A stretch of DNA of 33,700 bases, from positions 1-33,700 of the IMG/VR virus record IMGVR_UViG_3300010158_000199. One strand, written 5' to 3'. Below are positions 16,009 to 29,475 of the stretch, in pieces (the first letter of the stretch is position 1; every line of letters starts with the position of its first letter). Both the position numbers and the translations under genes were made by a program. The stretch comes from a virus. Under the pieces are notes generated by a model, which worked only from the letters and a program-made list of their open reading frames with translations, did no database searches and had not been told where the DNA came from.

Positions 16009-16018
16009 ATTTCCTTTA

Positions 16019-16058
16019 TCCTTAGATGGAGGTAGGCGTATAACCCGTATTCTAAGGA
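16019..16058 (+). promoter_or_regulatory. inverted repeat covering the ribosome site of the SpoVS gene
   Basis: TCCTTAGA (16019-16026) and TCTAAGGA (16051-16058) are perfect inverted repeats around a 24-base loop. The right arm contains AAGGA, the likely ribosome site for ATG 16065. RNA folding would hide it; as DNA it could be an operator. No T run follows, so it is not an intrinsic terminator. Confidence 0.45.
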
Positions 16059-16064
16059 CCACAA

Positions 16065-16367
16065 ATGAGCGAAGAACTCACCCCTGAAACCCTACCCTCA
16101 ACGGTAGAAGATTACCTCCGTGTAAGCAATAGTTCAAATCCACAATCCGTAGCCTCGGCAATAGCACACGCTATTTATGAAAGCCGTCAAGTAAAACTTC
16201 GTGCAGTTGGTGCTGGAGCAGTTAACCAAGCAGTAAAGGCTATTGCCATTGCTCGTGGTTATGTTGCCCCAAGAGGTTTAGACCTTACATGCAAACCAGG
16301 TTTCACTACTATCGATAGCCGTGATGGCGAGATAAGTGCAATCGTGTTTGCCATTTCAGCAAGTTAA
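16065..16367 (+). CDS. spoVS-like: SpoVS-family (stage V sporulation protein S-like) protein
   Basis: 100 residues. From VSNSSNPQSVASAIAHAI through VKLRAVGAGAVNQAVKAIAIARGYVAPRG to the final strand ISAIVFAI, the sequence follows the SpoVS/Alba-like pattern closely, including the invariant AVGAGAxNQAVKAIAIARG core. Family knowledge: SpoVS affects septation and sporulation in Bacillus, has an Alba-like fold and may bind nucleic acid; homologues occur in actinobacteria and phages. The first 20 residues are an acidic extension. It is the first gene after the replication block and lies behind an inverted repeat, so it may be separately regulated. Confidence 0.88.
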   Translation: MSEELTPETLPSTVEDYLRVSNSSNPQSVASAIAHAIYESRQVKLRAVGAGAVNQAVKAIAIARGYVAPRGLDLTCKPGFTTIDSRDGEISAIVFAISAS

Positions 16368-16404: not shown

Positions 16405-16851
16405 ATGGCTAAATGGACATCAATGGGGCATGGCATGCGTAAACGTGCAGGTCTGCCTTCAAATCACCACGAATCGGCAGGAGCCAACATGCGTGAACGC
16501 AATCACCCAACCCATCACGAAGCCTATGCAGCGGCACAGGAAGTCGGTTCAAGCCGTATTCCAGTAGGCGATGCAATCTATCAGGCTACCCCAGCCCCAG
16601 CACTTCAAGGAGCCCTAATTCCTAAGAAGAACCTGCAGGCGGGAGACCCAACTGGTATGGGAACCAAGCAGAACAAGCAGAACGTACCTTACGACGAGCG
16701 TCACGGTGCTCAGTACCGTATTACTGTTCCGTTTACCCCAACAATTGACCCTGCTGCTGGTCCAACCATGCAGAGTGCCAAGATTGTTCCATCTGTTCCA
16801 GGTCGCCAGAACCCAAACTTCCAGTCTGGTATGGAATACGCAAACCAGTAA
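16405..16851 (+). CDS. unknown His/Asn/Pro-rich protein, first gene of the array
   Basis: 148 residues with a very good ribosome site (AAAGGAG) before ATG 16405. Basic start (MAKWTSMGHGMRKRAG), a His-rich stretch (HHES, HPTHHEAY) and a Pro/Gly/Gln-rich, probably disordered second half. I recognise no family. The strong ribosome site suggests that this gene leads the coupled set of small genes to 22274 and that the array is well expressed. Virion-associated or host-acting roles are both open. Confidence 0.6.
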   Translation: MAKWTSMGHGMRKRAGLPSNHHESAGANMRERNHPTHHEAYAAAQEVGSSRIPVGDAIYQATPAPALQGALIPKKNLQAGDPTGMGTKQNKQNVPYDERHGAQYRITVPFTPTIDPAAGPTMQSAKIVPSVPGRQNPNFQSGMEYANQ

Positions 16852-16861
16852 GGATTAATTG

Positions 16862-17095
16862 ATGTCCGCATCAATTTTGCAGAGTCAGCAAGCATTTAGC
16901 CTTCCATCGGACCCAGGTGTCCATTGGAACGCTAATGCCGCTTCCTCTACCCCTGGAGCCAATGCAAACTCCGTAGGATTAAAGTCGCATGCTCGGGGGG
17001 TTATTGAGCGTGGTCCTAATACTCCACCACGTTCGTATGACGCCGCTACTGGAGGCAGAAGCGACGTAGACTACGGAGCAGTTTATGGCACTTAG
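16862..17095 (+). CDS. small Ser/Ala/Gly-rich protein, unknown
   Basis: 77 residues from ATG 16862 (an in-frame TTG lies directly before it). Composition is Ser, Ala, Asn, Gly and Pro, with no hydrophobic core and no motif, so it is probably disordered. AAGGA at 16850-16854 serves as ribosome site. Its last codons overlap the next gene. Confidence 0.5.
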   Translation: MSASILQSQQAFSLPSDPGVHWNANAASSTPGANANSVGLKSHARGVIERGPNTPPRSYDAATGGRSDVDYGAVYGT

Positions 17096-17366
17096 TCCAC
17101 GTGCTCAAGGAGTGCTACAAAAGCACCGAGTAATGTCTCAACCTCAGTTTAAAATCGTAGGTATTGAGTCCCCCGTAGAATCAGGACAAATTCAGTCAAA
17201 AGGTAAAGTAAACCAGAAATCTGGTGCGTTTAACATTGCCGTGAGTGATTTTAACAAGCAGACCCACAGCGACGAACACCCAGGAGTTTTGTCTTACCAG
17301 ACTGCAACTAGCGGTACTTTCTTGAGTCAAAATGAAGAACCTGTAAAGCAAGAAGGCGGTTACTAA
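17085..17366 (+). CDS. small protein of the array, unknown
   Basis: 93 residues, basic N-terminal half (SPRAQGVLQKHRVM) then Gln/Ser/Gly-rich sequence. ATG 17085 overlaps the preceding gene by 11 bases and its stop overlaps the next start (TAATG). No recognisable motif. Confidence 0.55.
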   Translation: MALSPRAQGVLQKHRVMSQPQFKIVGIESPVESGQIQSKGKVNQKSGAFNIAVSDFNKQTHSDEHPGVLSYQTATSGTFLSQNEEPVKQEGGY

Positions 17367-18178
17367 TGCCTAGAGGTGCCGCAGAGTTTAACGTAGGAAT
17401 TCAGGCTGCTGTTCCAGCAATAGCCAGAGGAGCCGCTGACTACACTCAACAAATGGGTCTTGCTCCACGCCCAGCGTCTTTCAATAACATAGCAGTGGAT
17501 TTGCCACAAGCACAGGGTATCGCTAGAGACTATCTAGCAGCACCTGACTTTGACCCAGCGGCACTGCCACATTACAGAGCCATGCGTGATGAAATTGGTC
17601 GTCAATACGATTTTATGACTAAACCAGTTGCTAAAGGTGGGTTAGGTCTATTTCATACTATTACCGCAGAAGACCCATACCCATCTGCTCGTGCCATGTT
17701 TAACGATGTTTCCGAAGGCAGAATCAAGAGCCTCGCCACTAAAAGCACTGGTTCACATCCTTTCTTTACTGATGATGAAAACGACATGTTCCGTGCCGTT
17801 CATGACGTATTTGGTCACGCTGGTTCTGGTCGTAATTTCAATCCTGCTGGAGAAGAGGCTGCTTTCCGTAGCCACTTTGGCATGTTTACTCCTTTGGCTC
17901 GTGGAGCCATGGCTGCAGGTACTCGTGGGCAAAATAGCACCAACAACTTTGGTGGACAGCCACCAGGTTCTTATGTAAAGGGCAAGACTATTGTTTTGCC
18001 GTCTACTTTAAAGTTTTTGCCTACTCCAAACCAGTTAATTTTGCCAACAACACTTACAGCACAGTCATCTATTGGATTGCCTGCTAACGTAGGTCAGCAA
18101 TTCCTAGCCACTATGGAGCACGCTAGGTCGTTTGGTCTTCCAGGGGCTCCACATCCAGAAGCGAAATGGTTGAACTAG
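17366..18178 (+). CDS. phage polyvalent-type domain protein with HDxFGH motif
   Basis: 270 residues. The centre carries DPYPSARAMFNDV, then MFRAVHDVFGH (H146, D147, H151), GEEAAFRSH (E163, E164, H170) and TRGQN (186-190). I recall this order of motifs from large polyvalent proteins of phages and conjugative elements, where it is one domain among many; here it stands alone. The paired histidines and conserved glutamate resemble a metal site, and the HDxFGH string also recalls the iron ligands of aromatic amino acid hydroxylases, but no reaction is established. Polyvalent proteins are thought to enter the cell with the DNA. Ala/Pro-rich N-terminus is probably flexible. Confidence 0.6.
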   Translation: MPRGAAEFNVGIQAAVPAIARGAADYTQQMGLAPRPASFNNIAVDLPQAQGIARDYLAAPDFDPAALPHYRAMRDEIGRQYDFMTKPVAKGGLGLFHTITAEDPYPSARAMFNDVSEGRIKSLATKSTGSHPFFTDDENDMFRAVHDVFGHAGSGRNFNPAGEEAAFRSHFGMFTPLARGAMAAGTRGQNSTNNFGGQPPGSYVKGKTIVLPSTLKFLPTPNQLILPTTLTAQSSIGLPANVGQQFLATMEHARSFGLPGAPHPEAKWLN

Positions 18179-18179
18179 C

Positions 18180-18713
18180 ATGGCAGGTGGAGTAAATAAC
18201 TATAGTGCCCAGCAAAACTGGCAATCTCTTGGCGGTAACGGCTTCAGTGGTTACAACAACCAAGGTGGTTTTGGTGGTCCTGTTGCACGTGGTGAACTGG
18301 ACGCTATGCGTATCGGTACTGGACGTGTTCCACAAGCAGAATACCCTGATGGCTACTTAGGTACCATCCGCAGCCGTCGTGATGACCGCTTACTTGACTC
18401 CATTAAGAGTCGCCTAGGGCAAAAGTCTTACCAGCGTGGTGTCCATAAGGGTGAGCGTATTGAGCCATCTATGTACTACTGGTCACCAAGTTTTAACGCA
18501 GACATGGGCATTAAGCGTCAAATGAAAGCAAAGCAAGTACTGGACAACGGAGTTGTAGTCTGGAAAACCCCGAGAATGGGTCAAGACCTCAACCTCGTAC
18601 CTGCTCCACACCTAGTAAATGACGGTAAGGCAAACACTGTGGCTAATGGTCCAACTGTTATTAACGCCCAACGTGCCAACGCCTTGAATTACTTGAAGCC
18701 AGTGTGGAGATAA
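18180..18713 (+). CDS. Gly/Asn/Gln-rich protein of the array, unknown
   Basis: 177 residues. The first 40 are Gly/Asn/Gln-rich (NNYSAQQNWQSLGGNGFSGYNNQ), followed by an Arg-rich portion (TIRSRRDDRLLDSIKSRLG) and a tail with RANALNYLKPVWR. The mix of flexible and basic segments suggests an assembly or nucleic-acid-associated role, but no family is recognised. It starts one base after the previous stop. Confidence 0.55.
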   Translation: MAGGVNNYSAQQNWQSLGGNGFSGYNNQGGFGGPVARGELDAMRIGTGRVPQAEYPDGYLGTIRSRRDDRLLDSIKSRLGQKSYQRGVHKGERIEPSMYYWSPSFNADMGIKRQMKAKQVLDNGVVVWKTPRMGQDLNLVPAPHLVNDGKANTVANGPTVINAQRANALNYLKPVWR

Positions 18714-18714
18714 G

Positions 18715-19098
18715 ATGCCAGCAAATCTCGCTACCTCGGGCTTCGGTTATGGAAGCAATGAAACTGATGGTCGTTACGACCACACTAAGCCATGGTCTGG
18801 TCCTGGGCAATCAGGTAACTGGTCATACCGTGGTCCATGGTCAAGCAACGAAGAGAAGTTGATTCAACAGGCTCTAGTTGTAAACAGCATGAAGCGTCAA
18901 CTTATCCAAGAAATGGTAAGACCTCCATTACCTCAGATTCAATTGTTTCCACAAAAAACTGGGTACATTATGGAGCAGCCAGGAATTGACGATGTAGTCA
19001 GTGCTGACAGAGTTTACATGGAACCAAGAGTTCAGTGGTTCTCTGGTGGTGTTGGCAGTTACTCAGGTAGCACACGTAATGGATTAGAAGGAGTCTAA
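18715..19098 (+). CDS. array protein starting MPAN, unknown
   Basis: 127 residues beginning MPANLATSGFGYG, then a Trp/Gly/Ser-rich part (KPWSGPGQSGNWSYRGPWS) and a helix (EEKLIQQALVVNSMKRQLIQEMV). It shares the MPAN start with the genes at 19703 and 21362. It ends in a TAATG overlap with the next gene. No motif known to me. Confidence 0.55.
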   Translation: MPANLATSGFGYGSNETDGRYDHTKPWSGPGQSGNWSYRGPWSSNEEKLIQQALVVNSMKRQLIQEMVRPPLPQIQLFPQKTGYIMEQPGIDDVVSADRVYMEPRVQWFSGGVGSYSGSTRNGLEGV

Positions 19099-19703
19099 TG
19101 CAACCCCATTTTGAAGAACTAGCACCATCAGAAGCGTCTATTTTCTTAGACAAGATTCGTACTGCTAAAAAAGCCCAAAAGCACGGTGCCTCTGTAGACC
19201 TAAAACCATTACAAGATTTAATCTCCTCTAAAATGTTTTTGACTAGAGACGGATTGGCTGGATACGCTGTATCTCCAGAAGGAGAACTACACTCAGTATT
19301 TAAGCACCCGTCTGCTCCATACGAAGATGTAGCAAGACACGCCGCAGAACATGGTATTTTAATGGGCGGAGCCTCTCACGCCTCAGCATTTGATGGTTTT
19401 TTAACTGAAGGCTATGCTCGTGGAGGAATGAAGGCTGTTGCCTATCAACCATTTGCCGATGAGTACAAGCCTGCTAACTGGAAATTTAAAGTCAGTGGAA
19501 GACCTGACGTTGCCTTTTTAGCCGCTGACCGAAATGTCGCACACCCTGCAATTTCTGCAAAACAAACTGGTCAAAAGTTTTATAGTCCTGCCTTCCAAGG
19601 CGGACTGCGAGCCCCAACAATTAACGACAATGATTTTGGCTACGCAGCAGCAGAATTAATTGGAAAAGACAACAGAAAAGACCAATTAGGAAGCCAAGCC
19701 TAA
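19098..19703 (+). CDS. GNAT-like phage domain protein, tentative
   Basis: 201 residues. Residues about 50-140 have the strand-helix order of GNAT-type folds: KMFLTRDGLAGYAVSPEGELHSVF, a helix EDVARHAAEHG, then ASAFDGFLTEGYARGGMKAVAYQPFADEYKPANW and later DVAFLA. The last part follows a pattern I recall in phage and prophage proteins annotated as GNAT-like. The acetyl-CoA loop (Q/RxxGxG/A) is not clear, so enzymatic activity is uncertain. Like the HDxFGH protein nearby, it could be a stand-alone version of a polyvalent-protein domain. Confidence 0.45.
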   Translation: MQPHFEELAPSEASIFLDKIRTAKKAQKHGASVDLKPLQDLISSKMFLTRDGLAGYAVSPEGELHSVFKHPSAPYEDVARHAAEHGILMGGASHASAFDGFLTEGYARGGMKAVAYQPFADEYKPANWKFKVSGRPDVAFLAADRNVAHPAISAKQTGQKFYSPAFQGGLRAPTINDNDFGYAAAELIGKDNRKDQLGSQA

Positions 19704-19885
19704 TGCCAGCAAACAGACCGCCAAACAGAGCCAGTATTCATTGGGCTAATCCAGCCTTAGCCGAAGGCATGCGTCAAATCCGCAGAAGCAACGCCGCTGG
19801 CATCCACGCAGACAAACGTACTCGTAGAGCCAGAACTAAAAAATCCGCAGATACCAAAGCAATCAACGAAAGTAAAGAACAGTAA
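19703..19885 (+). CDS. small basic protein starting MPANRPPNRA
   Basis: 60 residues, very basic (TRRARTKKSADTK), beginning MPANRPPNRAS. The first ten residues match the gene at 21362 except one position, and the DNA is alike, so the two N-termini are probably related by duplication. TAATG overlaps with genes on both sides. Likely nucleic-acid binding by charge; no family. Confidence 0.55.
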   Translation: MPANRPPNRASIHWANPALAEGMRQIRRSNAAGIHADKRTRRARTKKSADTKAINESKEQ

Positions 19886-20271
19886 TGGCAACAAATCTTG
19901 TTTTTAAACCTTTTAGAGGTGGAGTAAACACAGCCCAAAAGCACATCAACAACATAGCGGCTAACCTCCATACGATAAGAAATCACGGGTACAGACTTGC
20001 AGATAAGTCCTACCGAATTACTAGCCAGTTCGATGAGCACATGGCAAACGCTTATTCTGCTCTAAACACCTCGTTAAAAGAGGCTCGTGGTGGCTCTAGT
20101 CGTCAGACTGCGGCAACAGCAATTCAGCACTTATCTAGTGCGGTAAACCTAATTGGTGTACACCTACCAAACAGTCTTGCCCATACAGAAGCCTCTGCAG
20201 CCCTGAACTCGGCAATTCAATCCCACGCAGCCCTAACCAAGCACGAAGCGGAAGCGAGTAGCAATGTTTGA
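19885..20271 (+). CDS. helical protein of the array, unknown
   Basis: 128 residues, helix-rich with repeated Ala/His/Asn patterns (AQKHINNIAANLHTIRNHG, TAIQHLSSAVNLIGVHL, SAALNSAIQSHAALTKHEAEA). It looks like a three- to four-helix bundle. It starts in a TAATG overlap with the previous gene and overlaps the next open frame by eight bases. Confidence 0.55.
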   Translation: MATNLVFKPFRGGVNTAQKHINNIAANLHTIRNHGYRLADKSYRITSQFDEHMANAYSALNTSLKEARGGSSRQTAATAIQHLSSAVNLIGVHLPNSLAHTEASAALNSAIQSHAALTKHEAEASSNV

Positions 20272-20290
20272 TGAAGGTGGCGGAGAAACG

Positions 20291-20464
20291 ATGGCACTTC
20301 AGGCTTACACAATCCAGAAAAATGCTAACCTTAATAAGAGGAACATGCTTTGCCCTACCTGCGGCATCATCATGAACCCTGTGGAGTTTATGTACAGCAA
20401 AGGTATGTGCCCTCCATGCTATGAAGACAGAATGGCTAGACGAGTGAAAGGAAAACTTGCCTAA
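20291..20464 (+). CDS. 57-residue zinc ribbon protein
   Basis: Start ATG 20291 is chosen because GGAG (20282-20285) is six bases upstream; the frame is open back to ATG 20264, which would overlap the previous gene by eight bases. Two cysteine pairs, CPTCG and CPPC, about 20 residues apart, form a zinc ribbon; the tail is basic (RMARRVKGK). It is one of at least six small zinc proteins in the window. Confidence 0.65.
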   Translation: MALQAYTIQKNANLNKRNMLCPTCGIIMNPVEFMYSKGMCPPCYEDRMARRVKGKLA

Positions 20465-20772
20465 TGCTTGTAAACTCCAACCGTCGTGGTGCCAAGGACA
20501 TTAACCCTAAAAAGGCTATGCAAATACAGGTTGCCTTGGACTACCTAAAGGCTCTAGACGAACACGGCAGAGCGGTGGGTCAATCAACCGACTTCAGAAG
20601 ACTTTATGCCGCACAGGCTAACCTTCAAACGGCTAAACAAAACCTTCTCCATTATCATGACGGAGATGCGACCTCTGCTTCTCAAACAGTGGACGAAGCA
20701 GACCAATTAAGAATTCAGGGCAAAAGAGACGCAATTAAAAATGGTCAAGACCCTACAAACATCCAAATCTAA
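20464..20772 (+). CDS. helical basic protein, unknown
   Basis: 102 residues, mostly helix (QIQVALDYLKALDEHG, RLYAAQANLQTAKQNLLHYH), with Arg/Lys at the start (NSNRRGAKDINPKK). TAATG overlap with the zinc ribbon gene. No known motif. Confidence 0.55.
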   Translation: MLVNSNRRGAKDINPKKAMQIQVALDYLKALDEHGRAVGQSTDFRRLYAAQANLQTAKQNLLHYHDGDATSASQTVDEADQLRIQGKRDAIKNGQDPTNIQI

Positions 20773-20787
20773 TAGAAAGAAGCAATC

Positions 20788-20994
20788 ATGGCAGTGAACA
20801 CATCCCGTTCAATGAACGAAAGCCTAGGCGAAGGTGCTACCGATGGTAAGTACCGCAAGATTCGTCCTGACACCCAAGTACTAGACCTACAAGGTAACGA
20901 GCAGATTCTGGATAACCGCCAGAGCCTACACCCATTCTATGGGTATGGTTTTGCTACTACCGAGTACCAAGAAAAGCAGAATCCAGGTAAATAA
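20788..20994 (+). CDS. small protein of the array, unknown
   Basis: 68 residues, polar, with a Tyr/Phe/Gly patch (HPFYGYGFATTEYQE) near the end. ATG 20788 follows the previous stop by 15 bases, with AGAAAGAAGC as a weak ribosome site. Its stop overlaps the next start (TAATG). Confidence 0.5.
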   Translation: MAVNTSRSMNESLGEGATDGKYRKIRPDTQVLDLQGNEQILDNRQSLHPFYGYGFATTEYQEKQNPGK

Positions 20995-21359
20995 TGCCAC
21001 TATTTAGAAGACGCAATAAAGCAGGTGCTGGTGCTGGTCCAGTAGTCGAGATGAACCCTCACATCAACATCCCAGGAGTTCCTCGTCCAGGACAGGCAAT
21101 GGGTAGCAGACCTACTCCTTCAATACCTGGAACACCATCGCACACTCCAACCCCAATGTCAACTCCAGAGAAGCCTCGTTCACACAACGACGGAAAGTCA
21201 GAAGAACACCTAAAGGCTCCAAGCAGCGAGTTTCATGGCTACAATAACCGTCAGGTTGGCGAAGCAAAAGACAACGCCATAGACAACGCTAATAGATTTG
21301 GCGGACCAGTTACGACTGCTCACATTCAAGACGCACTAAAGAGATTGAACGGTAGATAA
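20994..21359 (+). CDS. Pro/Gly-rich protein of the array, unknown
   Basis: 121 residues. Basic start (LFRRRNKAG), then a long Pro/Thr/Ser/Gly segment with repeated proline turns (PGVPRPG, PSIPGTPSHTPTPMSTPEKP), and a short helical end (TAHIQDALKRLNGR). Probably mostly disordered. Start overlaps the previous stop. Confidence 0.55.
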   Translation: MPLFRRRNKAGAGAGPVVEMNPHINIPGVPRPGQAMGSRPTPSIPGTPSHTPTPMSTPEKPRSHNDGKSEEHLKAPSSEFHGYNNRQVGEAKDNAIDNANRFGGPVTTAHIQDALKRLNGR

Positions 21360-21361
21360 TC

Positions 21362-21712
21362 ATGCCAGCAAATAGACCCCCAGACAGAGCCCCTTACGGC
21401 AGTCACCTGCCTTCAGGCATTAAGAAACTGGCAGACATGGCTGCCTCAAAGCAGCCTGACAGAACCAGTTCAAAACAAAACCTAGCAAACTATGCTGACC
21501 CAAACTGGAAAGGTCCAAAAGGTCCTGGCACCACTCTTCGCCAGCACCGCAGAGCATCAAAGAAAGCATCTGCTCCACAGCAACCTCCTCGTGACCCTAA
21601 CAACCCAGATGGACCTCTTGGTGGACAACCTGCTAAAAAACCTAAAGGTCCTAAGAAGCCTAAAGACCCAAACTTAAACCCAAACATGGCAGTGCCATTT
21701 GGTAGGAGATAA
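21362..21712 (+). CDS. basic Pro/Lys-rich protein starting MPANRPPDRA
   Basis: 116 residues. It begins MPANRPPDRAPYGS, nearly identical to the start of the 19703 gene, then a basic helix, and ends in a Lys/Pro tract (KKPKGPKKPKDP). This composition fits nucleic-acid binding or an RNA-chaperone-like tail. The similarity suggests local duplication of a short 5' coding module. Confidence 0.55.
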   Translation: MPANRPPDRAPYGSHLPSGIKKLADMAASKQPDRTSSKQNLANYADPNWKGPKGPGTTLRQHRRASKKASAPQQPPRDPNNPDGPLGGQPAKKPKGPKKPKDPNLNPNMAVPFGRR

Positions 21713-21714
21713 CC

Positions 21715-22053
21715 ATGGCTAAACCAAAGAGAGTATCTAACAGAAACGGTGCTGCAGAAGCAATTGTTGCTAGAGAAGCCTTTCAAGGAAACAACTTCTC
21801 AGGTAGCCCTGTTAACTACACCCCATCAAACACTGGTCGTTTGAACAAAGAAAACGCAGATAGATTGTCAGCAGACAACCCTAACTATGTAGTTCATTCT
21901 TATGGAACACCTATTGCATGGCATGGGGATAACGGTTGGGTAGTCCCAGACCAAAAGCACAGTGTTACTACTTCAAACCACCAAGGCATTGTTCGTCGTG
22001 CCCTAGGACTAAATGACCACTTTAAGAGCGGTCAGGGACTAGCGAGAATCTAA
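21715..22053 (+). CDS. protein with mobile-element domain (possibly DUF8033-like)
   Basis: 112 residues. The second half reads YVVHSYGTPIAWHGDNGWVV ... SVTTSNHQGIVRRALG. I recall a closely similar pattern (V-x-SY-x-TPIA ... SxTTSxHQ ... VRRAL) as a small domain common in phages and conjugative elements, possibly the DUF8033 family; the name is from memory and unverified. The first 50 residues are Asn/Ser-rich. Function is unknown for the family as far as I know. Confidence 0.5.
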   Translation: MAKPKRVSNRNGAAEAIVAREAFQGNNFSGSPVNYTPSNTGRLNKENADRLSADNPNYVVHSYGTPIAWHGDNGWVVPDQKHSVTTSNHQGIVRRALGLNDHFKSGQGLARI

Positions 22054-22274
22054 TGGCTACCCCTCCAGACAGAAGCAAATCAACTAAAAGAAGTGATTTG
22101 TACGATAAACTGAAAGTCATTCGCTATAAAATGGCTTATGGCGGTAGTACTGACCCGTTGTCATTTAATTTCAACCCTGCTTTACCCAAAGGTCCAGACG
22201 GAAAAGTAAAAAAGAATCTTAAAACAAGCGAAATAAGTAACTACAAAAAAGGGAACAAACCAAAGTACAACTAA
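22053..22274 (+). CDS. small Lys-rich protein, unknown
   Basis: 73 residues, strongly basic, starting MATPPDRSKSTKRSD, which echoes the PPDR string of the MPANRPPDR protein. Many Lys residues in the C-terminal half (KKNLKTSEISNYKKGNKPK). TAATG overlap with the previous gene. It ends the tight part of the array. Confidence 0.5.
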   Translation: MATPPDRSKSTKRSDLYDKLKVIRYKMAYGGSTDPLSFNFNPALPKGPDGKVKKNLKTSEISNYKKGNKPKYN

Positions 22275-22287
22275 CAAGGAGCATTAC

Positions 22288-22851
22288 ATGTCAGACATTC
22301 CATTACTTGGCTCAAGACAAATGGAGCACAAGGGTCCGCTTATTCGCCTACTACGTTGCCTAGTCTGCAACACCTGGGAAGAACTACCAGATTGGGATGG
22401 CAAAGTAGAGGAAGACTTCCTTCTGGAGGTCTCCATTGAAAAGCATAAGTTCCCATCGGGTGAGCCTCATGTAGGCAAACTGTTTAAAGTCCCAGTGTCT
22501 TACTGGGCTAGTCCAGAAAAGCGTAAGGCTGTTCTACAGCAACTCGGACAGGGTGGCTCCATAGGTTTGGACGCCCTTGACCCAGACAAGTCATTCTACG
22601 ACAGCAAGATGACCTTTGCTGAAGACGCTATGAACTGCTGGAAGTCTCGCCTAAGCCCTAAAGATGGCTGTGGAGATTACCAGACTCCACAGAAGCGTAT
22701 TCTCCCTAAGACCGCTGCGGAGCGTAAGGAGTTAGGTCTCCCTAGTCCAGCAGATGCCCCAGGACCAAAGGTTTACATTTGTAACTTCTGTCCTGTACAC
22801 TCAGTAGTAACAAGTCGTAAACGCCAAATCCTTGGCTTATACGACAAGTAA
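22288..22851 (+). CDS. protein with two distant cysteine pairs (zinc-binding), unknown
   Basis: 187 residues with a good ribosome site (AAGGAG) before ATG 22288. Cysteine pair CLVC near residue 24 and pair CNFC near residue 165 could join one zinc site across a mixed alpha/beta core; CWKS and DGCG in between add two more cysteines. KPVYI-like strands and HSVV near the end are ordered. No family recognised; conserved appearance suggests a real fold, unlike the low-complexity genes before it. Confidence 0.6.
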   Translation: MSDIPLLGSRQMEHKGPLIRLLRCLVCNTWEELPDWDGKVEEDFLLEVSIEKHKFPSGEPHVGKLFKVPVSYWASPEKRKAVLQQLGQGGSIGLDALDPDKSFYDSKMTFAEDAMNCWKSRLSPKDGCGDYQTPQKRILPKTAAERKELGLPSPADAPGPKVYICNFCPVHSVVTSRKRQILGLYDK

Positions 22852-22859
22852 GGAATAGC

Positions 22860-22967
22860 ATGGCAAAAGGTGCTCGTAACACTAACCGTCAAAACGGTAA
22901 AGCGTCCAAAAAACGACCAAAGGTATTCGATGCAATCAAGCGTCGTCTAGTAAACAAGGAGAAATAA
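22860..22967 (+). CDS. 35-residue highly basic peptide
   Basis: Starts at ATG 22860 with AAGGA upstream and ends exactly where the next start begins. Fourteen of 35 residues are Lys or Arg (KKRPKVFDAIKRRLVNKEK), so it is likely to bind nucleic acid or an acidic protein surface. No other motif. Confidence 0.55.
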   Translation: MAKGARNTNRQNGKASKKRPKVFDAIKRRLVNKEK

Positions 22968-23261
22968 ATGGCAAACGACAAGCAAGTAGAAGTAGCATTC
23001 TTGGTACTACTACACACTGATGGCACATTTGCTGTCAAACTTGAAGACCTAACGGAGCCTGTGGAGGCTGCTCGTGTGGCTGATGCTGGAGATGTGCTAA
23101 ACGTCTCACAGACCATCATTGAAGAACTAAAGGCACAGGCTCTAGTCAGCCGTATTGTGTTGGCTCTTCAGCCTCCACAGCAACCAACTGTCTCAGACAA
23201 GGTTAAGGACGCCCTAAAAGAGCGTGGCATTGACCCTGAAAGTACCTCCATAGCCGAGTAA
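22968..23261 (+). CDS. small alpha/beta protein, unknown
   Basis: 97 residues. Begins with strands (VEVAFLVLLHTDGTFAVKL), then an Ala/Val-rich helix region (AARVADAGDVLNVSQTIIEEL) and an acidic helical tail. AAGGAG (22955-22960) precedes the start. It resembles small phage regulatory or structural helper proteins but no family is recognised. Confidence 0.55.
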   Translation: MANDKQVEVAFLVLLHTDGTFAVKLEDLTEPVEAARVADAGDVLNVSQTIIEELKAQALVSRIVLALQPPQQPTVSDKVKDALKERGIDPESTSIAE

Positions 23262-23270
23262 ACTAGTCGT

Positions 23271-24176
23271 ATGACTGGTTTAGGTGCGTATGAGACATCG
23301 TACTTCAGCACACCGTCAGCAACCCTTGACCCGACGCTCTTCCAAGGGCGTCACTTGCAGTCCTGGGTGCGTCAAGGCGTAATGTCTTTACTTAATGACT
23401 TTTTGAGTCAAAAGTATCATCATGCCGAATTATGGACGCACCCTTGGCTTGCAGGGTCAGGGGTTTCTTATCAATGGTCAGCCTCTCGTCAGCCTGCTGA
23501 CCTAGACTGCCTAGTAGGCGTGAACTTTGTACAGTTCCGCAAGGCTAATCCTGCCTTCACTGGTCTTAGTGACAAAGAGATTGCCGCCCAACTAAACGAA
23601 GAGTTTAAATCTGAATTACAGCCAGATACCGAAAACTGGAATGGCTACGAACTTACTTTTTATGTAAACCCAACCGCTACGGACATCCGCTCCATAAAGC
23701 CGTACGCTGCGTACGACCTCAAATACGATGAGTGGACTGTAACTCCTAGCGAAAACTCTAAAGCCCCCTCTAAGCCAGAATGGCAGAGTGTGGCTCATGG
23801 AGATGCCATGATGACTAACCAAGTCGTGACTAGGTTTACTACCGCCAAGAATGACTTAACTGTGGCTACCAATCCAGCCGCTAGACGCAATGCTGAGACC
23901 CGCCTTTGGTCAGCAGGAGCACAGGGCAATGCCCTATTCAATGAAATCCATGACAACAGAGCACTAGCCTTTAGTGCTAATGGAGAAGGCTATAACGACT
24001 TCCATAACTATCGTTGGCAAGCAGGCAAAAGCACTGGAGCAATCCAAGCCTTGCGAACAATTAGGGAAAACATGAAGGGCATGCTACAAGAAAAAAATAG
24101 TTCCACTTATGGAGTGGAATTTCCAGATTCGGCTACGCTTATCAGAAGAGCCGCCCTACAAAGAAATGAGCAATAA
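23271..24176 (+). CDS. putative nucleotidyltransferase-fold protein
   Basis: 301 residues. GSGVSYQW (G62, S63) followed 13 residues later by D77-L-D79-CLVGV matches the GS...DxD metal-binding pattern of nucleotidyltransferases, and IRSIKPYAAYDL supplies the later strand. I recall similar proteins in actinophages and actinobacterial genomes. The last 120 residues are helical with Arg (AARRNAETRLW). Possible roles: transferring a nucleotide to tRNA, protein or DNA bases. It heads a closely spaced set with a HAD-like and a TGT-like gene. Activity is inference. Confidence 0.5.
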   Translation: MTGLGAYETSYFSTPSATLDPTLFQGRHLQSWVRQGVMSLLNDFLSQKYHHAELWTHPWLAGSGVSYQWSASRQPADLDCLVGVNFVQFRKANPAFTGLSDKEIAAQLNEEFKSELQPDTENWNGYELTFYVNPTATDIRSIKPYAAYDLKYDEWTVTPSENSKAPSKPEWQSVAHGDAMMTNQVVTRFTTAKNDLTVATNPAARRNAETRLWSAGAQGNALFNEIHDNRALAFSANGEGYNDFHNYRWQAGKSTGAIQALRTIRENMKGMLQEKNSSTYGVEFPDSATLIRRAALQRNEQ

Positions 24177-24931
24177 TGGCTAAGAAAAAACTTGACCTTA
24201 GTAAGCCAATAGACGTGCCTGTATCTCCATCAGGTCTCCCAACAAAAACTAACGGGTTTATTCGTGCAGCCCAAGACACTAGCCTACAACGCTTTAGAAG
24301 TACTGGTGCAGCCATGCGTGAGCAGTTCAGGATGCTAATGGCACAAGCCAAAGACAGAGCATCAGGGTTACCTGTGAAAGACCGACAAGAGAAATTGAAC
24401 GAGCCCCTAGAAATGGGTGGAGTAGTCCCAGTGACTATAGACCAAAGCAAAGTAGGAGATGAGGTATACCAGTGGTCTGATAGAACCCCTAACTCACGTC
24501 TAAACCAAAAATTAAAACAGCACCTAATTGATTCGGATTATGTGGCAACCAAGGCTTCAACAGGTCATTACGCAAAGTTAGCCCAAAATGAAATTACCTA
24601 CAAGAATAACATTCCAACCTACTCTGATTTAGGTAACCACTTCCTTAGAGTTCATGCAGGTAACCACCAAGCAGAAGTCAATAGGCTTTCAGACTTAATC
24701 GACAAGAACGACCCACAAACAATTCTGGAGCATGCCGCAGCGGCTGGAGTAAGGGTATTCCATGACACTACCTCCATTGGAAGCCATCGAGTACGAGTAC
24801 TTGTTGCTCCTGGGGTTTATGAAAAAGGCGAAGCAAAGAGGTTTACTAATGACGCTTCAACTCCTATCACTGCTACACAAGATGTGGACAGCCTACCCGA
24901 AGCCGCTAGATACGAAAAAAAGAAAAACTAG
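24176..24931 (+). CDS. unknown protein between NTase-like and HAD-like genes
   Basis: 251 residues. Lys-rich start, helical region with TSLQRFRSTGAAMREQFRMLMAQ, and a mixed C-terminal domain with AGVRVFHDTTSIGSHRVRVLVAPGVY, where two strands flank a HD...S.G.H segment. I do not recognise it. TAATG overlap with the NTase-like gene and a five-base gap to the next gene suggest it belongs functionally to that set. Confidence 0.55.
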   Translation: MAKKKLDLSKPIDVPVSPSGLPTKTNGFIRAAQDTSLQRFRSTGAAMREQFRMLMAQAKDRASGLPVKDRQEKLNEPLEMGGVVPVTIDQSKVGDEVYQWSDRTPNSRLNQKLKQHLIDSDYVATKASTGHYAKLAQNEITYKNNIPTYSDLGNHFLRVHAGNHQAEVNRLSDLIDKNDPQTILEHAAAAGVRVFHDTTSIGSHRVRVLVAPGVYEKGEAKRFTNDASTPITATQDVDSLPEAARYEKKKN

Positions 24932-24936
24932 TCTAA

Positions 24937-25422
24937 ATGCAAATACTCGTAGAACTAGATGGCGTACTAAGAAACAAAGACGATGGCATTATCTCCACAG
25001 GAGTGCTTACATACTCCATGCTTACTGCCTATAACCGAATGACTATCATGTCAACCAGCACCGAAGAAGACACCCTTCGCTGGTTAAATGTCAATAAGGT
25101 TGTAGATGTGGACAACATCATAGACTCCTCTGTTGCTTTGGAGGGCGAAGACCTTGCGGAGCGACAAATCAACTTTGCTCGAAGCAGAGGTGCTATTGAC
25201 TTGTTTATTACCAGTAATCCTAAGTTGTGGGCTTACGCTTTTGACTTAGGTATTACCTCCATAATGTTTGGAGTACCTTCTTACATCCGCCCTGAGTTCC
25301 GTCCAGATGCACCTAAAAAGGTTCGTTCTTGGGACTCTATCCAAGAGGCTATTGACCGACAGAACGAGGCTAGGGTCAAAGACTTGCGTCTTACTCGCAG
25401 CACCGATGTGAGTTTTGAATGA
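24937..25422 (+). CDS. HAD-like protein with altered motif I
   Basis: 161 residues. MQILVELDGVLRNKDD resembles HAD motif I (hhhhDxDGx), but the first, nucleophilic Asp is Glu (E-L-D-G). TIMSTST fits motif II (Ser/Thr), and IDLFITSNPKLWAYAFDLGITSIMFG fits the motif III/IV region with the Asp pair replaced. It would be either a binding protein with HAD fold or an enzyme with unusual chemistry. Its stop overlaps the start of the TGT-like gene (ATGA), so the two are probably made in step. Confidence 0.6.
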   Translation: MQILVELDGVLRNKDDGIISTGVLTYSMLTAYNRMTIMSTSTEEDTLRWLNVNKVVDVDNIIDSSVALEGEDLAERQINFARSRGAIDLFITSNPKLWAYAFDLGITSIMFGVPSYIRPEFRPDAPKKVRSWDSIQEAIDRQNEARVKDLRLTRSTDVSFE

Positions 25423-26891
25423 TTATTTTCAATGGTGTGGAGATTCCCTCCAATAGAATTCTTCTGGAGAAGTGTGGAGTTCAGCATGTAATGCTCAACT
25501 ACTGGGGGCTCCGTAAGCGGGGACTTCCTAAGACTAAGGCTTATCTAGTAGGCGAACATTTCTATCCAAACATGAAGGTATGGATAGACTCTGGAGCCTC
25601 TTCTGCGGACGAAGCCAACTTGTCTAAAGAAGAACTGCTTGAATACGCAGCGGATTATGAAGAGTTTATCTCCTACAACTATGAGCGTATTTCAGGCTGG
25701 GTTGAGTTTGACAGTCAAGTCTTAGGGCTTGAATGGGTAGAACAACAACGCTACACCCAAGGGGCGGACCCTAAGCGATGGGTTGTATGGAGAGAAAAAT
25801 ACGGAACCCCTAAACTTCAAAACTGGGCTACGGAGTTCCCAAACATTGCAATCCCTTACGAGACTATTGAGTCTATGACCTCGCTATCAGGCATTGTTCG
25901 AGGCTTGAAGAGCCGTCTCAATGTAGACTTCCATGCTCTTGCAACGGCAAAGCCAGACAACCTTCGTCAAATACCTTTCTCCACAACCTCCACACTGTCT
26001 TGGATAAGCCCTATGAGGCGTGGTGAGACCATCATTTGGGATGGTCAGAAACTTGTTCGTTATCCAAAAAACATGAAGGCACAGGCTCGTCCACGCTACA
26101 AGGCTTTGTTAGAAAAAGAAGGCTTTGACTTTCAGAAGTTTGTGGATGACGACACTTTAGAAGCAACCAAAGTGGCAGTCTGGTCTTACTTACAACTCGA
26201 AGCCAGCATGAAGAAAGGCAATCACATGTCCCAGTTAGCCGATAGTAATGACGACCCCCTATACACAGGTTTGATGCAAACAGGGGTAGGTGCTTCTAAT
26301 AACAGTGGTTCTGAGACTCTCAAACAAGAACATACAGAACTTGTCCAAAGAGACCCTAAAGACATCTCTCCATTGCCTGTTTTTGGCTACCAAATGAAGA
26401 CCATTGTGGAGACTGAAAATGGTCATGATGTGCTCAAAGATGTGCCTGTTGTGCATTCTCAAAGTGCCTCTTTACGCAACTGCAACACCTGCTTTGTCGC
26501 AGCGAACTGCCCTGCTTTCAAGCCCGATAATACCTGTGCTTTCAACTTGCCTGTGGAGGTAAAGACTAAAGACCAACTCAAGTCTTTGCTCACTACAATC
26601 ATCGAGATGCAGGGTCAGAGAGTAGCATTCATGCGGTTTGCAGAGGAAATGAATGGTGGCTATGCAGACCCAAATGTGTCTCAAGAAGTAGACCGCCTAT
26701 TCAAACTTGTAAAGTCTATGAAGGAACTTGATGAAAACAAAGAGTTCATTCGCATCACTGCGGAGAGGCAATCTAGTGGTGGTGTTTTGAGTGCAATCTT
26801 TGGTGATAGAGCACAGGCTTTACGAGAGATGAACCAGCCTCTAAATGAAGAAGAAACCACAAAGATTATCCGTAACTCACTGGAAAACTAG
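25419..26891 (+). CDS. TGT/DpdA-like TIM-barrel protein with C-terminal cysteine domain
   Basis: 490 residues. VWIDSGA (54-60), EFDSQVLGLEWVEQQR, IVRGLKSRLNVDFHALATAKP and FSTTSTLSWI (187-196) follow the order seen in phage proteins related to tRNA-guanine transglycosylase and DpdA, which exchange guanine for 7-deazaguanine in DNA. The usual TGT zinc cysteines are missing. Instead a C-terminal domain has C355-x2-C358-x5-C364-x8-C373 (NTCFVAANCPAFKPDNTC), able to bind zinc or an iron-sulfur cluster, followed by helices. No 7-deazaguanine synthesis genes are in the window, so the base source would be the host. Family placement is from memory of motif order. Confidence 0.55.
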   Translation: MIIFNGVEIPSNRILLEKCGVQHVMLNYWGLRKRGLPKTKAYLVGEHFYPNMKVWIDSGASSADEANLSKEELLEYAADYEEFISYNYERISGWVEFDSQVLGLEWVEQQRYTQGADPKRWVVWREKYGTPKLQNWATEFPNIAIPYETIESMTSLSGIVRGLKSRLNVDFHALATAKPDNLRQIPFSTTSTLSWISPMRRGETIIWDGQKLVRYPKNMKAQARPRYKALLEKEGFDFQKFVDDDTLEATKVAVWSYLQLEASMKKGNHMSQLADSNDDPLYTGLMQTGVGASNNSGSETLKQEHTELVQRDPKDISPLPVFGYQMKTIVETENGHDVLKDVPVVHSQSASLRNCNTCFVAANCPAFKPDNTCAFNLPVEVKTKDQLKSLLTTIIEMQGQRVAFMRFAEEMNGGYADPNVSQEVDRLFKLVKSMKELDENKEFIRITAERQSSGGVLSAIFGDRAQALREMNQPLNEEETTKIIRNSLEN

Positions 26892-29430: not shown

Positions 29431-29475
29431 TAAAAAAAGCCCCATGACCAACAGGTCATGGGGCTCTTTTCTTAT
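29431..29475. terminator. bidirectional intrinsic terminator between converging units
   Basis: AGCCCCATGACC (29438-29449) and GGTCATGGGGCT (29454-29465) form a perfect 12-bp stem with tetraloop AACA. TCTTTTCTT follows on the plus strand, and AAAAAAA precedes the stem (29432-29438), giving a T run for leftward transcripts. It stops both the reductase transcript and the integrase operon, whose stop codon is at 29472. Confidence 0.92.

What the first reader, a model, noticed from the sequence alone, without database searches (positions are those of the whole stretch)
16405..24931. Long chain of small, coupled, mostly unrecognised genes
Seen: about 20 genes in one direction, many joined by TAATG or overlaps of a few bases, encoding short Pro/Gly/Asn-rich, basic or zinc-binding proteins. 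No classical virion genes are recognised here. At least two members (17366, 21715) resemble domains otherwise found inside large polyvalent proteins; 19098 may be a third. Inference: this may be a split-up, stand-alone version of a polyvalent protein set injected with the DNA, or a divergent virion module.
Basis: partly seen in the sequence, partly recalled or inferred. Interest (0 to 1): 0.62.

Follow-up and report, generated by a model that had tools for sequence, protein, structure and literature searches.

The report
Phage cassette of unfused effector genes
A bacterial virus carries a tightly packed row of small genes in which a fixed set of conserved genes alternates with swappable ones; some of the swappable genes are single-gene versions of pieces that other viruses fuse into large proteins thought to be injected into the host cell.

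Summary
Window 16405-24931 is 98.4% coding with 20 same-strand genes, 8 joined by TAATG; I add a 21st ORF of 35 codons in the one long gap. The window is a fragment of an actinobacterial myovirus-like genome collinear with Streptomyces phage LuckySocke. In 68 related contigs the row has a fixed core (SpoVS-like gene, then homologues of 16405, 18180, 18715, 20264, 20788, 22288, 23271; same order in 68 of 68) and 211 clusters of variable genes between core genes. Two window genes (17366, 19098) are solo versions of domains found inside LPD38/LPD22/ART-PolyVal polyvalent proteins and virion proteins (Rhodococcus phage E3 gp205, Microbacterium phage Caron gp4); sister rows carry two more modules that isolates fuse in pairs, each in its own slot. 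Relatives hold lysis and baseplate genes inside the row, which suggests late expression. Best reading: a late cargo cassette of unfused, probably packaged effectors plus unknown core proteins, one a predicted nucleotidyltransferase. Packaging and injection are untested.

The parts
16009..16064 (+). leader between RuvC-like gene and SpoVS gene; hairpin predicted to cover the ribosome-binding site
   Evidence: 33 of 41 leaders with an AAGG motif have it paired; 8 of 11 stem pairs change on both sides; RNAalifold predicts none
16065..16367 (+). SpoVS-like (Alba-type by recall) gene, first core gene
   Evidence: Pfam PF04232 6.8e-30; 68 of 68 rows (the census required it)
16405..16851 (+). core gene, basic, unknown
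   Evidence: 68 of 68 rows
16859..17095 (+). accessory gene
   Evidence: 1 of 68 rows
17085..17366 (+). accessory gene
   Evidence: 1 of 68 rows
17366..18178 (+). module M1 (phrog_3170): solo version of a domain of virion and polyvalent proteins
   Evidence: model pLDDT 83.9 without PDB match
18180..18713 (+). core gene, most conserved, basic, Gly/Asn-rich N-terminus
   Evidence: 68 of 68 rows, dN/dS 0.05; LuckySocke gp177
18715..19098 (+). core gene
   Evidence: 68 of 68; LuckySocke gp178
19098..19703 (+). module M4 (phrog_2563): solo version of the C-terminal domain of Caron gp4 and of a domain of polyvalent proteins
19703..19885 (+). accessory, very basic (pI 11.7), N-terminus like 21362
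19885..20271 (+). accessory
   Evidence: 1 of 68
20264..20464 (+). core gene, zinc-ribbon-like
   Evidence: 68 of 68; only weak family hits
20464..20772 (+). accessory
   Evidence: 1 of 68
20788..20994 (+). core gene
   Evidence: 68 of 68; LuckySocke gp180
20994..21359 (+). accessory, basic
   Evidence: 3 of 68
21362..21712 (+). accessory, very basic, N-terminus like 19703
21715..22053 (+). accessory (phrog_32689 family), always a small solo protein
   Evidence: 11 of 68 rows; carriers 97-142 aa in 80 of 80
22053..22274 (+). accessory, basic, no relative in the rows compared
   Evidence: 0 of 68
22288..22851 (+). core gene with conserved Cys
   Evidence: 68 of 68; alignment; LuckySocke gp183
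22860..22967 (+). missed 35-codon basic ORF
   Evidence: 10 of 68 rows
22968..23261 (+). near-core gene, acidic
   Evidence: 50 of 68 by tblastn, 67 loci by clustering
23271..24176 (+). core gene, predicted minimal nucleotidyltransferase domain plus helical bundle
   Evidence: 68 of 68 (required by the census); G62 S63 D77 D79 E127 invariant in 41; model pLDDT 90.5; 1ylq Z 7.0, 1no5 Z 6.2
24176..24931 (+). accessory
   Evidence: 1 of 68
24937..25422 (+). conserved flank, relative of LuckySocke gp187 'phosphatase'
   Evidence: 66 of 68
25419..26891 (+). conserved flank, queuine tRNA-ribosyltransferase-like
   Evidence: phrog_887 2.2e-59; 65 of 68

Best explanation
The row is a late-expressed cargo cassette of an actinobacterial contractile-tailed phage lineage. 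A fixed core set of small proteins is encoded together with interchangeable small proteins that sit in set slots between core genes. At least some of the interchangeable ones are single-gene versions of modules that related phages fuse into large virion or polyvalent proteins. I infer that they are packaged with the DNA and delivered on infection, where they act on the host (nucleotidyltransferase-like 23271, 19098 whose relatives are annotated acetyltransferase, and the His/Asp/Glu-rich 17366 are candidate enzymes), with the basic proteins as DNA-bound or internal head proteins. Shown: gene order, conservation, slots, module homology, fusions in other phages. Inferred: late timing (from neighbours in relatives), packaging, injection, enzyme action.
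For: Core order identical in 68 of 68 related rows. M1 (17366): in E3 gp205, annotated 'structural protein', fused to DUF7178; in a 2803-aa protein with LPD38; of 80 relatives 32 lie in ORFs of 500 aa or more, 18 are solo beside terminase or portal on the same strand, 11 lie with core genes of the row. M4 (19098): in Caron gp4 'minor capsid protein' behind a VG15 domain, in DC33 with LPD22 and ART-PolyVal and in a 3443-aa ORF with LPD38. All 218 row profiles against 3,788 ORFs of other phages: 12 profiles hit, five of them accessory families that match large carriers (c8, c9, c10, c15, c23); 0 hits on reversed targets. M1+M2 fused in E3, M2+M3 in Skog gp165, M1+M3 in Ava3 gp107 and 20 metagenomic ORFs. 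In the rows M1 and M3 are always in the slot 16405-18180 (8 of 8, 24 of 24), M2 in 18180-18715 (20 of 20), M4 in 18715-20264 (5 of 5); the window's own 17366 and 19098 obey this. Lateness: LuckySocke's row contains NlpC/P60, transglycosylase-LysM and amidase-LysM genes; in L083 a Collar/Gp10_C baseplate-type gene stands between SpoVS and the 18180 homologue.
Against: No proteomic or transcript data. No virion gene of LuckySocke has a match in the window; in the close relatives read whole the portal is about 40-46 kb away. M1 to M4 occur in 33 of 68 rows only; 206 of 211 accessory clusters show no tie to polyvalent proteins, of which c82 (strong, on a contig with terminase and portal) and c209 (7e-4) had one hit each. 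In L083 and L110 M1 sits after the 18715 homologue, so the slot rule is lineage-bound. Streptomyces phage Dagobah has an M1 homologue in a row of small genes at a genome end with no virion gene in view. 21715 is not a polyvalent module. Searches for portal or capsid in ten carrier records were empty (these queries may miss them). E3's 'structural' label is a database annotation; the proteome paper was seen only as a reference.
Confidence: 0.45

Rival explanations
1. Late intracellular host-control operon: the proteins are made in the infected cell, are not packaged, and modify host proteins, RNA or the envelope before lysis.
For: Flanked by replication and recombination genes upstream and queuine-transferase and ribonucleotide reductase genes downstream; SpoVS, zinc-ribbon-like and basic small proteins; nucleotidyltransferase-like 23271; accessory representatives include HNH, methyltransferase and Lar-like families.
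Against: M1, M2 and M4 homologues in virion-annotated or polyvalent proteins and beside terminase/portal; baseplate-type gene inside the row in L083.
Confidence: 0.28
2. Divergent structural module: the core proteins are small head, neck or tail parts, and the variable genes are decoration or adhesion add-ons.
For: Core strictly conserved in order and sequence; W/Y/P/G-rich extended style like the terminase-portal gene LS71 (by eye); Collar/Gp10_C gene in the row in L083.
Against: Head and tail gene sets lie elsewhere in relatives; no PHROG head or tail family for any of the 20 window proteins; enzyme-like members.
Confidence: 0.17
3. Slots with no common role: the core is one unit, and the variable genes are unrelated selfish or moron genes that insert at tolerated junctions.
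For: 132 singleton clusters of 218; HNH endonuclease families among accessory genes.
Against: Module-specific slots, pairwise fusions of the same modules elsewhere, purifying selection.
Confidence: 0.1

Closest known systems
Polyvalent proteins of phages and plasmids (Iyer et al. 2017, PMC5512222; sections 8, 29, 32 and passages read)
   Same: 17366 and 19098 are homologous to domains inside LPD38/LPD22/ART-PolyVal proteins; the paper notes solo versions near late genes, for example a GNAT in Mycobacterium phage Alice.
   Different: Here every domain is a separate gene, in set slots between conserved core genes; no LPD domain itself is in the row.
Rhodococcus phage E3 gp205, Gordonia phage Skog gp165/gp166, Mycobacterium phage Ava3 gp106/gp107
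   Same: Carry M1, M2 and M3, in regions with head or tail genes.
   Different: Pairs of modules are fused; no core genes of the row were found in the E3, Skog and Ava3 stretches.
Row gp174-gp189 of Streptomyces phages LuckySocke and relatives such as BRock
   Same: Same order of core genes 16065, 16405, 18180, 18715, 20788, 22288, 23271, 24937, 25419.
   Different: Contains three cell-wall hydrolase genes and no M1 to M4; no relative of 20264 found there.
MuF/VG15-type minor capsid protein with a C-terminal extra domain (Microbacterium phage Caron gp4)
   Same: Residues 348-519 are the 19098 domain.
   Different: Fused to a head protein there, free here.

Membership tests
Polyvalent proteins | two or more disparate domains in one polypeptide | tested here: not met
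   window proteins are 35-301 aa; no multi-domain Pfam or PHROG pattern; 23271 may have two domains but one activity
Polyvalent proteins | domains of types found in such proteins | tested here: met
   17366 and 19098 only; 21715 not, 0 of 80
Polyvalent proteins | encoded near late virion genes | tested here: inconclusive
   none in the window; lysis or baseplate-type genes inside the row in two related lineages; M1 beside terminase/portal in 18 of 80
Polyvalent proteins | packaged and injected | not testable with these tools
   needs virion proteomics and an ejection assay
Standard head-tail structural proteins | homology to known head or tail families | tested here: not met
   none among 20 window proteins; LuckySocke virion proteins find nothing in the window
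BRock/LuckySocke-like myovirus lineage | collinear replication genes and row | tested here: met
   20 LuckySocke proteins match the window, the first 17 collinear; endoVII, RNR and WhiB lie elsewhere in LuckySocke
BRock/LuckySocke-like myovirus lineage | contractile tail genes | tested here: inconclusive
   the window is a fragment; sheath found in 10 of 11 related records searched
Minimal nucleotidyltransferase (23271) | GS and DxD motif with a third acid on a strand | tested here: met
   G62, S63, D77, D79, E127 invariant in 41; the motif itself is recalled
Minimal nucleotidyltransferase (23271) | fold | tested here: inconclusive
   1ylq Z 7.0 over 88 residues, 1no5 Z 6.2 over 96; Foldseek gave no match at E 0.001
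SpoVS (16065) | Pfam PF04232 above cut-off | tested here: met
   103.1 bits, cut-off 24

The most novel reading that the evidence does not exclude
The row is a 'cargo rack': core proteins act as a loading or ejection scaffold, each with a fixed slot for one class of effector, and a whole phage lineage has unfused the polyvalent strategy into separately translated, freely exchanged injected proteins under one tightly coupled late operon.
Probability: 0.2. Interest if true: 0.8.

Novelty: new variant of a known kind. Interest (0 to 1): 0.55.

Why it matters
Polyvalent injected proteins are mostly inferred from fused domains. A lineage in which the same modules are separate genes with fixed positions gives a natural dissection: each module can be followed, swapped or deleted alone, and 211 clusters of accessory genes in 68 contigs are a candidate pool of host-directed phage proteins. 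It also gives a testable role for conserved genes that are 'hypothetical' in cultured Streptomyces phages.

Tried and rejected
21715 as a polyvalent module: rejected. DUF7178 as the usual partner of M1: only E3 among 32 large M1 carriers; the usual partner is M3. A link between 19098 and the 'acetyltransferase' gp122 of Ava3: none. Fold of 17366: no PDB match by Foldseek or VIA-align, so no function from fold. 23271: Foldseek listed no nucleotidyltransferase at E 0.001. Host or prophage: the 18180 profile found nothing in genome contigs, so no host is named; the integrase-like gene at 29472 is by eye. The first 19098 scan with a single sequence gave nothing, the profile gave 24. RNAalifold saw no leader hairpin on the MAFFT alignment; the stem named by me was then counted, where sliding by -1 still gives 39 against 43 changed cells, so support is moderate. 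Rfam: none. Papers: 'DUF7178' in 0 papers; 'polyvalent protein', 'actinobacteriophage', 'virion' (two of three) gave 211 papers, 12 listed, Iyer 2017 first and none seen on this row. The BRock announcement (passages) has no proteomics words. Searches for E3, Bxz1 and cluster C proteomics gave no data used.

Rows dropped: 12 of 80 loci without SpoVS upstream of 23271, so SpoVS and 23271 are 68 of 68 by construction; 75 of 211 accessory representatives were not family-scanned (136 scanned); 25 of 68 leaders were left out (20 without an ATG/GTG start found, 5 duplicates). M1 in 8 rows includes two short pieces of about 45 codons. E3 appears twice in the fusion counts.
Full report
What was checked. 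The window is one IMG/VR record of 33,700 bases. Gene calling gives one + strand run from 116 to 29420 and a - strand set after it. The finding's stretch holds 20 genes, 98.4% coding, 10 of 19 junctions overlapping and 8 joined by TAATG. Composition and charge differ from the other 30 + strand genes. Comparison with the close relative L002 shows purifying selection for 18 of 20 genes (dN/dS 0.03-0.35); 19885 has saturated dS and 22053 has no usable homologous stretch there. A 35-codon ORF at 22860-22967 fills the only long gap.

What genome this is. LuckySocke (Streptomyces) proteins match the window from a DnaC-like loader through DnaB, primase, helicase, PolA, RecA, resolvase, Cas4-like and RuvC-like genes to gp174, gp177, gp178, gp180, gp183, gp186, gp187 and gp189, in that order. 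BRock, a relative of LuckySocke by shared row genes, is described as a myovirus (abstract). Related contigs up to 95 kb add terminase, portal, capsid, sheath and baseplate genes of the same lineage. None of the LuckySocke virion proteins matches inside the window, so the window is a fragment without head and tail genes.

The row is a conserved cassette. With a profile of 23271 the viral collection gave 278 relatives, of which 80 were kept. In 68 of these 80 the stretch from SpoVS to 23271 is present; 16405, 18180, 18715, 20264, 20788 and 22288 are in all 68, always in the same order; SpoVS and 23271 were required for inclusion. 22968 is in 50 by tblastn and in 67 loci by clustering. Of 936 called ORFs between SpoVS and 23271, 892 are on the + strand. 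These form 218 clusters, 211 not core, 132 singletons. Gaps between core genes range up to 5,060 bases. The 68 contigs are related and not independent.

Known modules among the variable genes. All 218 cluster profiles were run on 3,788 ORFs of other phages (E3, Ava3, Skog, Caron, LuckySocke, MinM2, ctQRb9, DC33 and metagenomic carriers); reversed targets gave 0 hits. Besides core hits in LuckySocke, L083, L110, L131 and L132, five accessory families hit: c15 (17366, M1), c8 (DUF7178-like, M2), c9 and c10 (one overlapping region, M3) and c23 (19098, M4). Two more clusters had one hit each, c82 (5e-33, on a contig with terminase and portal) and c209 (7e-4). M1 and M2 are one protein in E3 (gp205, annotated structural protein), M2 and M3 in Skog gp165 with M1 as the next gene, M1 and M3 in Ava3 gp107 with M2 as the gene before, and M1+M3 in 20 further ORFs. 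In rows of the window's lineage they are separate genes: 33 of 68 rows have at least one, 22 at least two, and 2 have M1, M3 and M2 in line. M1 and M3 are always in the slot after 16405, M2 always between 18180 and 18715, M4 always between 18715 and 20264. In L083 and L110, another lineage, M1 is after the 18715 homologue.

Link to polyvalent and virion proteins. M1 lies in a 2,803-aa protein with LPD38 and in a 3,209-aa ORF between lysozyme and tail-fibre genes. M4 lies in Caron gp4 behind a VG15 head domain, in DC33 with LPD22 and ART-PolyVal and in a 3,443-aa ORF with LPD38. Of 80 M1 relatives 32 are in ORFs of at least 500 aa, 18 are solo beside terminase or portal on the same strand, 1 on the opposite strand, 11 with row genes, 18 elsewhere or unknown. 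In L116 a 626-aa carrier directly precedes an E3-type portal gene. Large M1 carriers also bear, once each, NUDIX, HAD phosphatase, PemK and Lar domains, as polyvalent proteins do.

Timing. LuckySocke has NlpC/P60, transglycosylase-LysM and amidase-LysM genes within the row; L083 has a Collar/Gp10_C baseplate-type gene within it. This supports late expression by company; it is not a measurement.

Function clues. 23271 is modelled with pLDDT 90.5; residues 35-150 and 19-152 align with two minimal nucleotidyltransferases (Z 7.0 and 6.2), the rest is a generic helical bundle; G62, S63, D77, D79 and E127 are invariant in 41 sequences. 17366 is modelled with pLDDT 83.9 and has no PDB match; its invariant His, Asp, Glu and Arg suggest an enzyme, which is inference. 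Streptomyces relatives of 19098 are annotated acetyltransferase; not tested here. The other proteins of the row have no known function.

Verdict. The row is real, conserved and organised. A part of it is, literally, an unfused set of polyvalent-protein modules. That it is packaged and injected is the most economical reading of where these modules are found elsewhere, and it is not shown. No paper on the row was found in the searches listed, which cover open-licence papers only.

Noticed in passing
window 16009-16064: Leader of the SpoVS gene with a conserved GAGGANGGC box in the loop and a stem that covers the AAGGA ribosome-binding site; stem letters change in pairs among 44 leaders, no Rfam match. 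Possibly controlled by SpoVS itself, an Alba-type protein by recall.
   Followed up: partly
window 22860-22967: Unannotated 35-codon basic ORF, found at the same place in 10 of 68 rows.
   Followed up: yes
window 25419-26891: Queuine tRNA-ribosyltransferase-like gene (phrog_887) conserved next to the row in 65 of 68 contigs; may modify phage DNA or tRNA.
   Followed up: no
window 19703-19885 and 21362-21712: Two very basic proteins share the N-terminus MPANRPP(N/D)RA, suggesting duplication or a shared targeting signal.
   Followed up: no
L083:1712-3649: Collar/Gp10_C baseplate-type protein within the row of another phage lineage.
   Followed up: partly
L023 (Limnohabitans phage DC33): Record is classed as Inoviridae but encodes a polyvalent protein of about 3,100 aa with LPD22 and ART-PolyVal; the classification looks wrong.
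   Followed up: no
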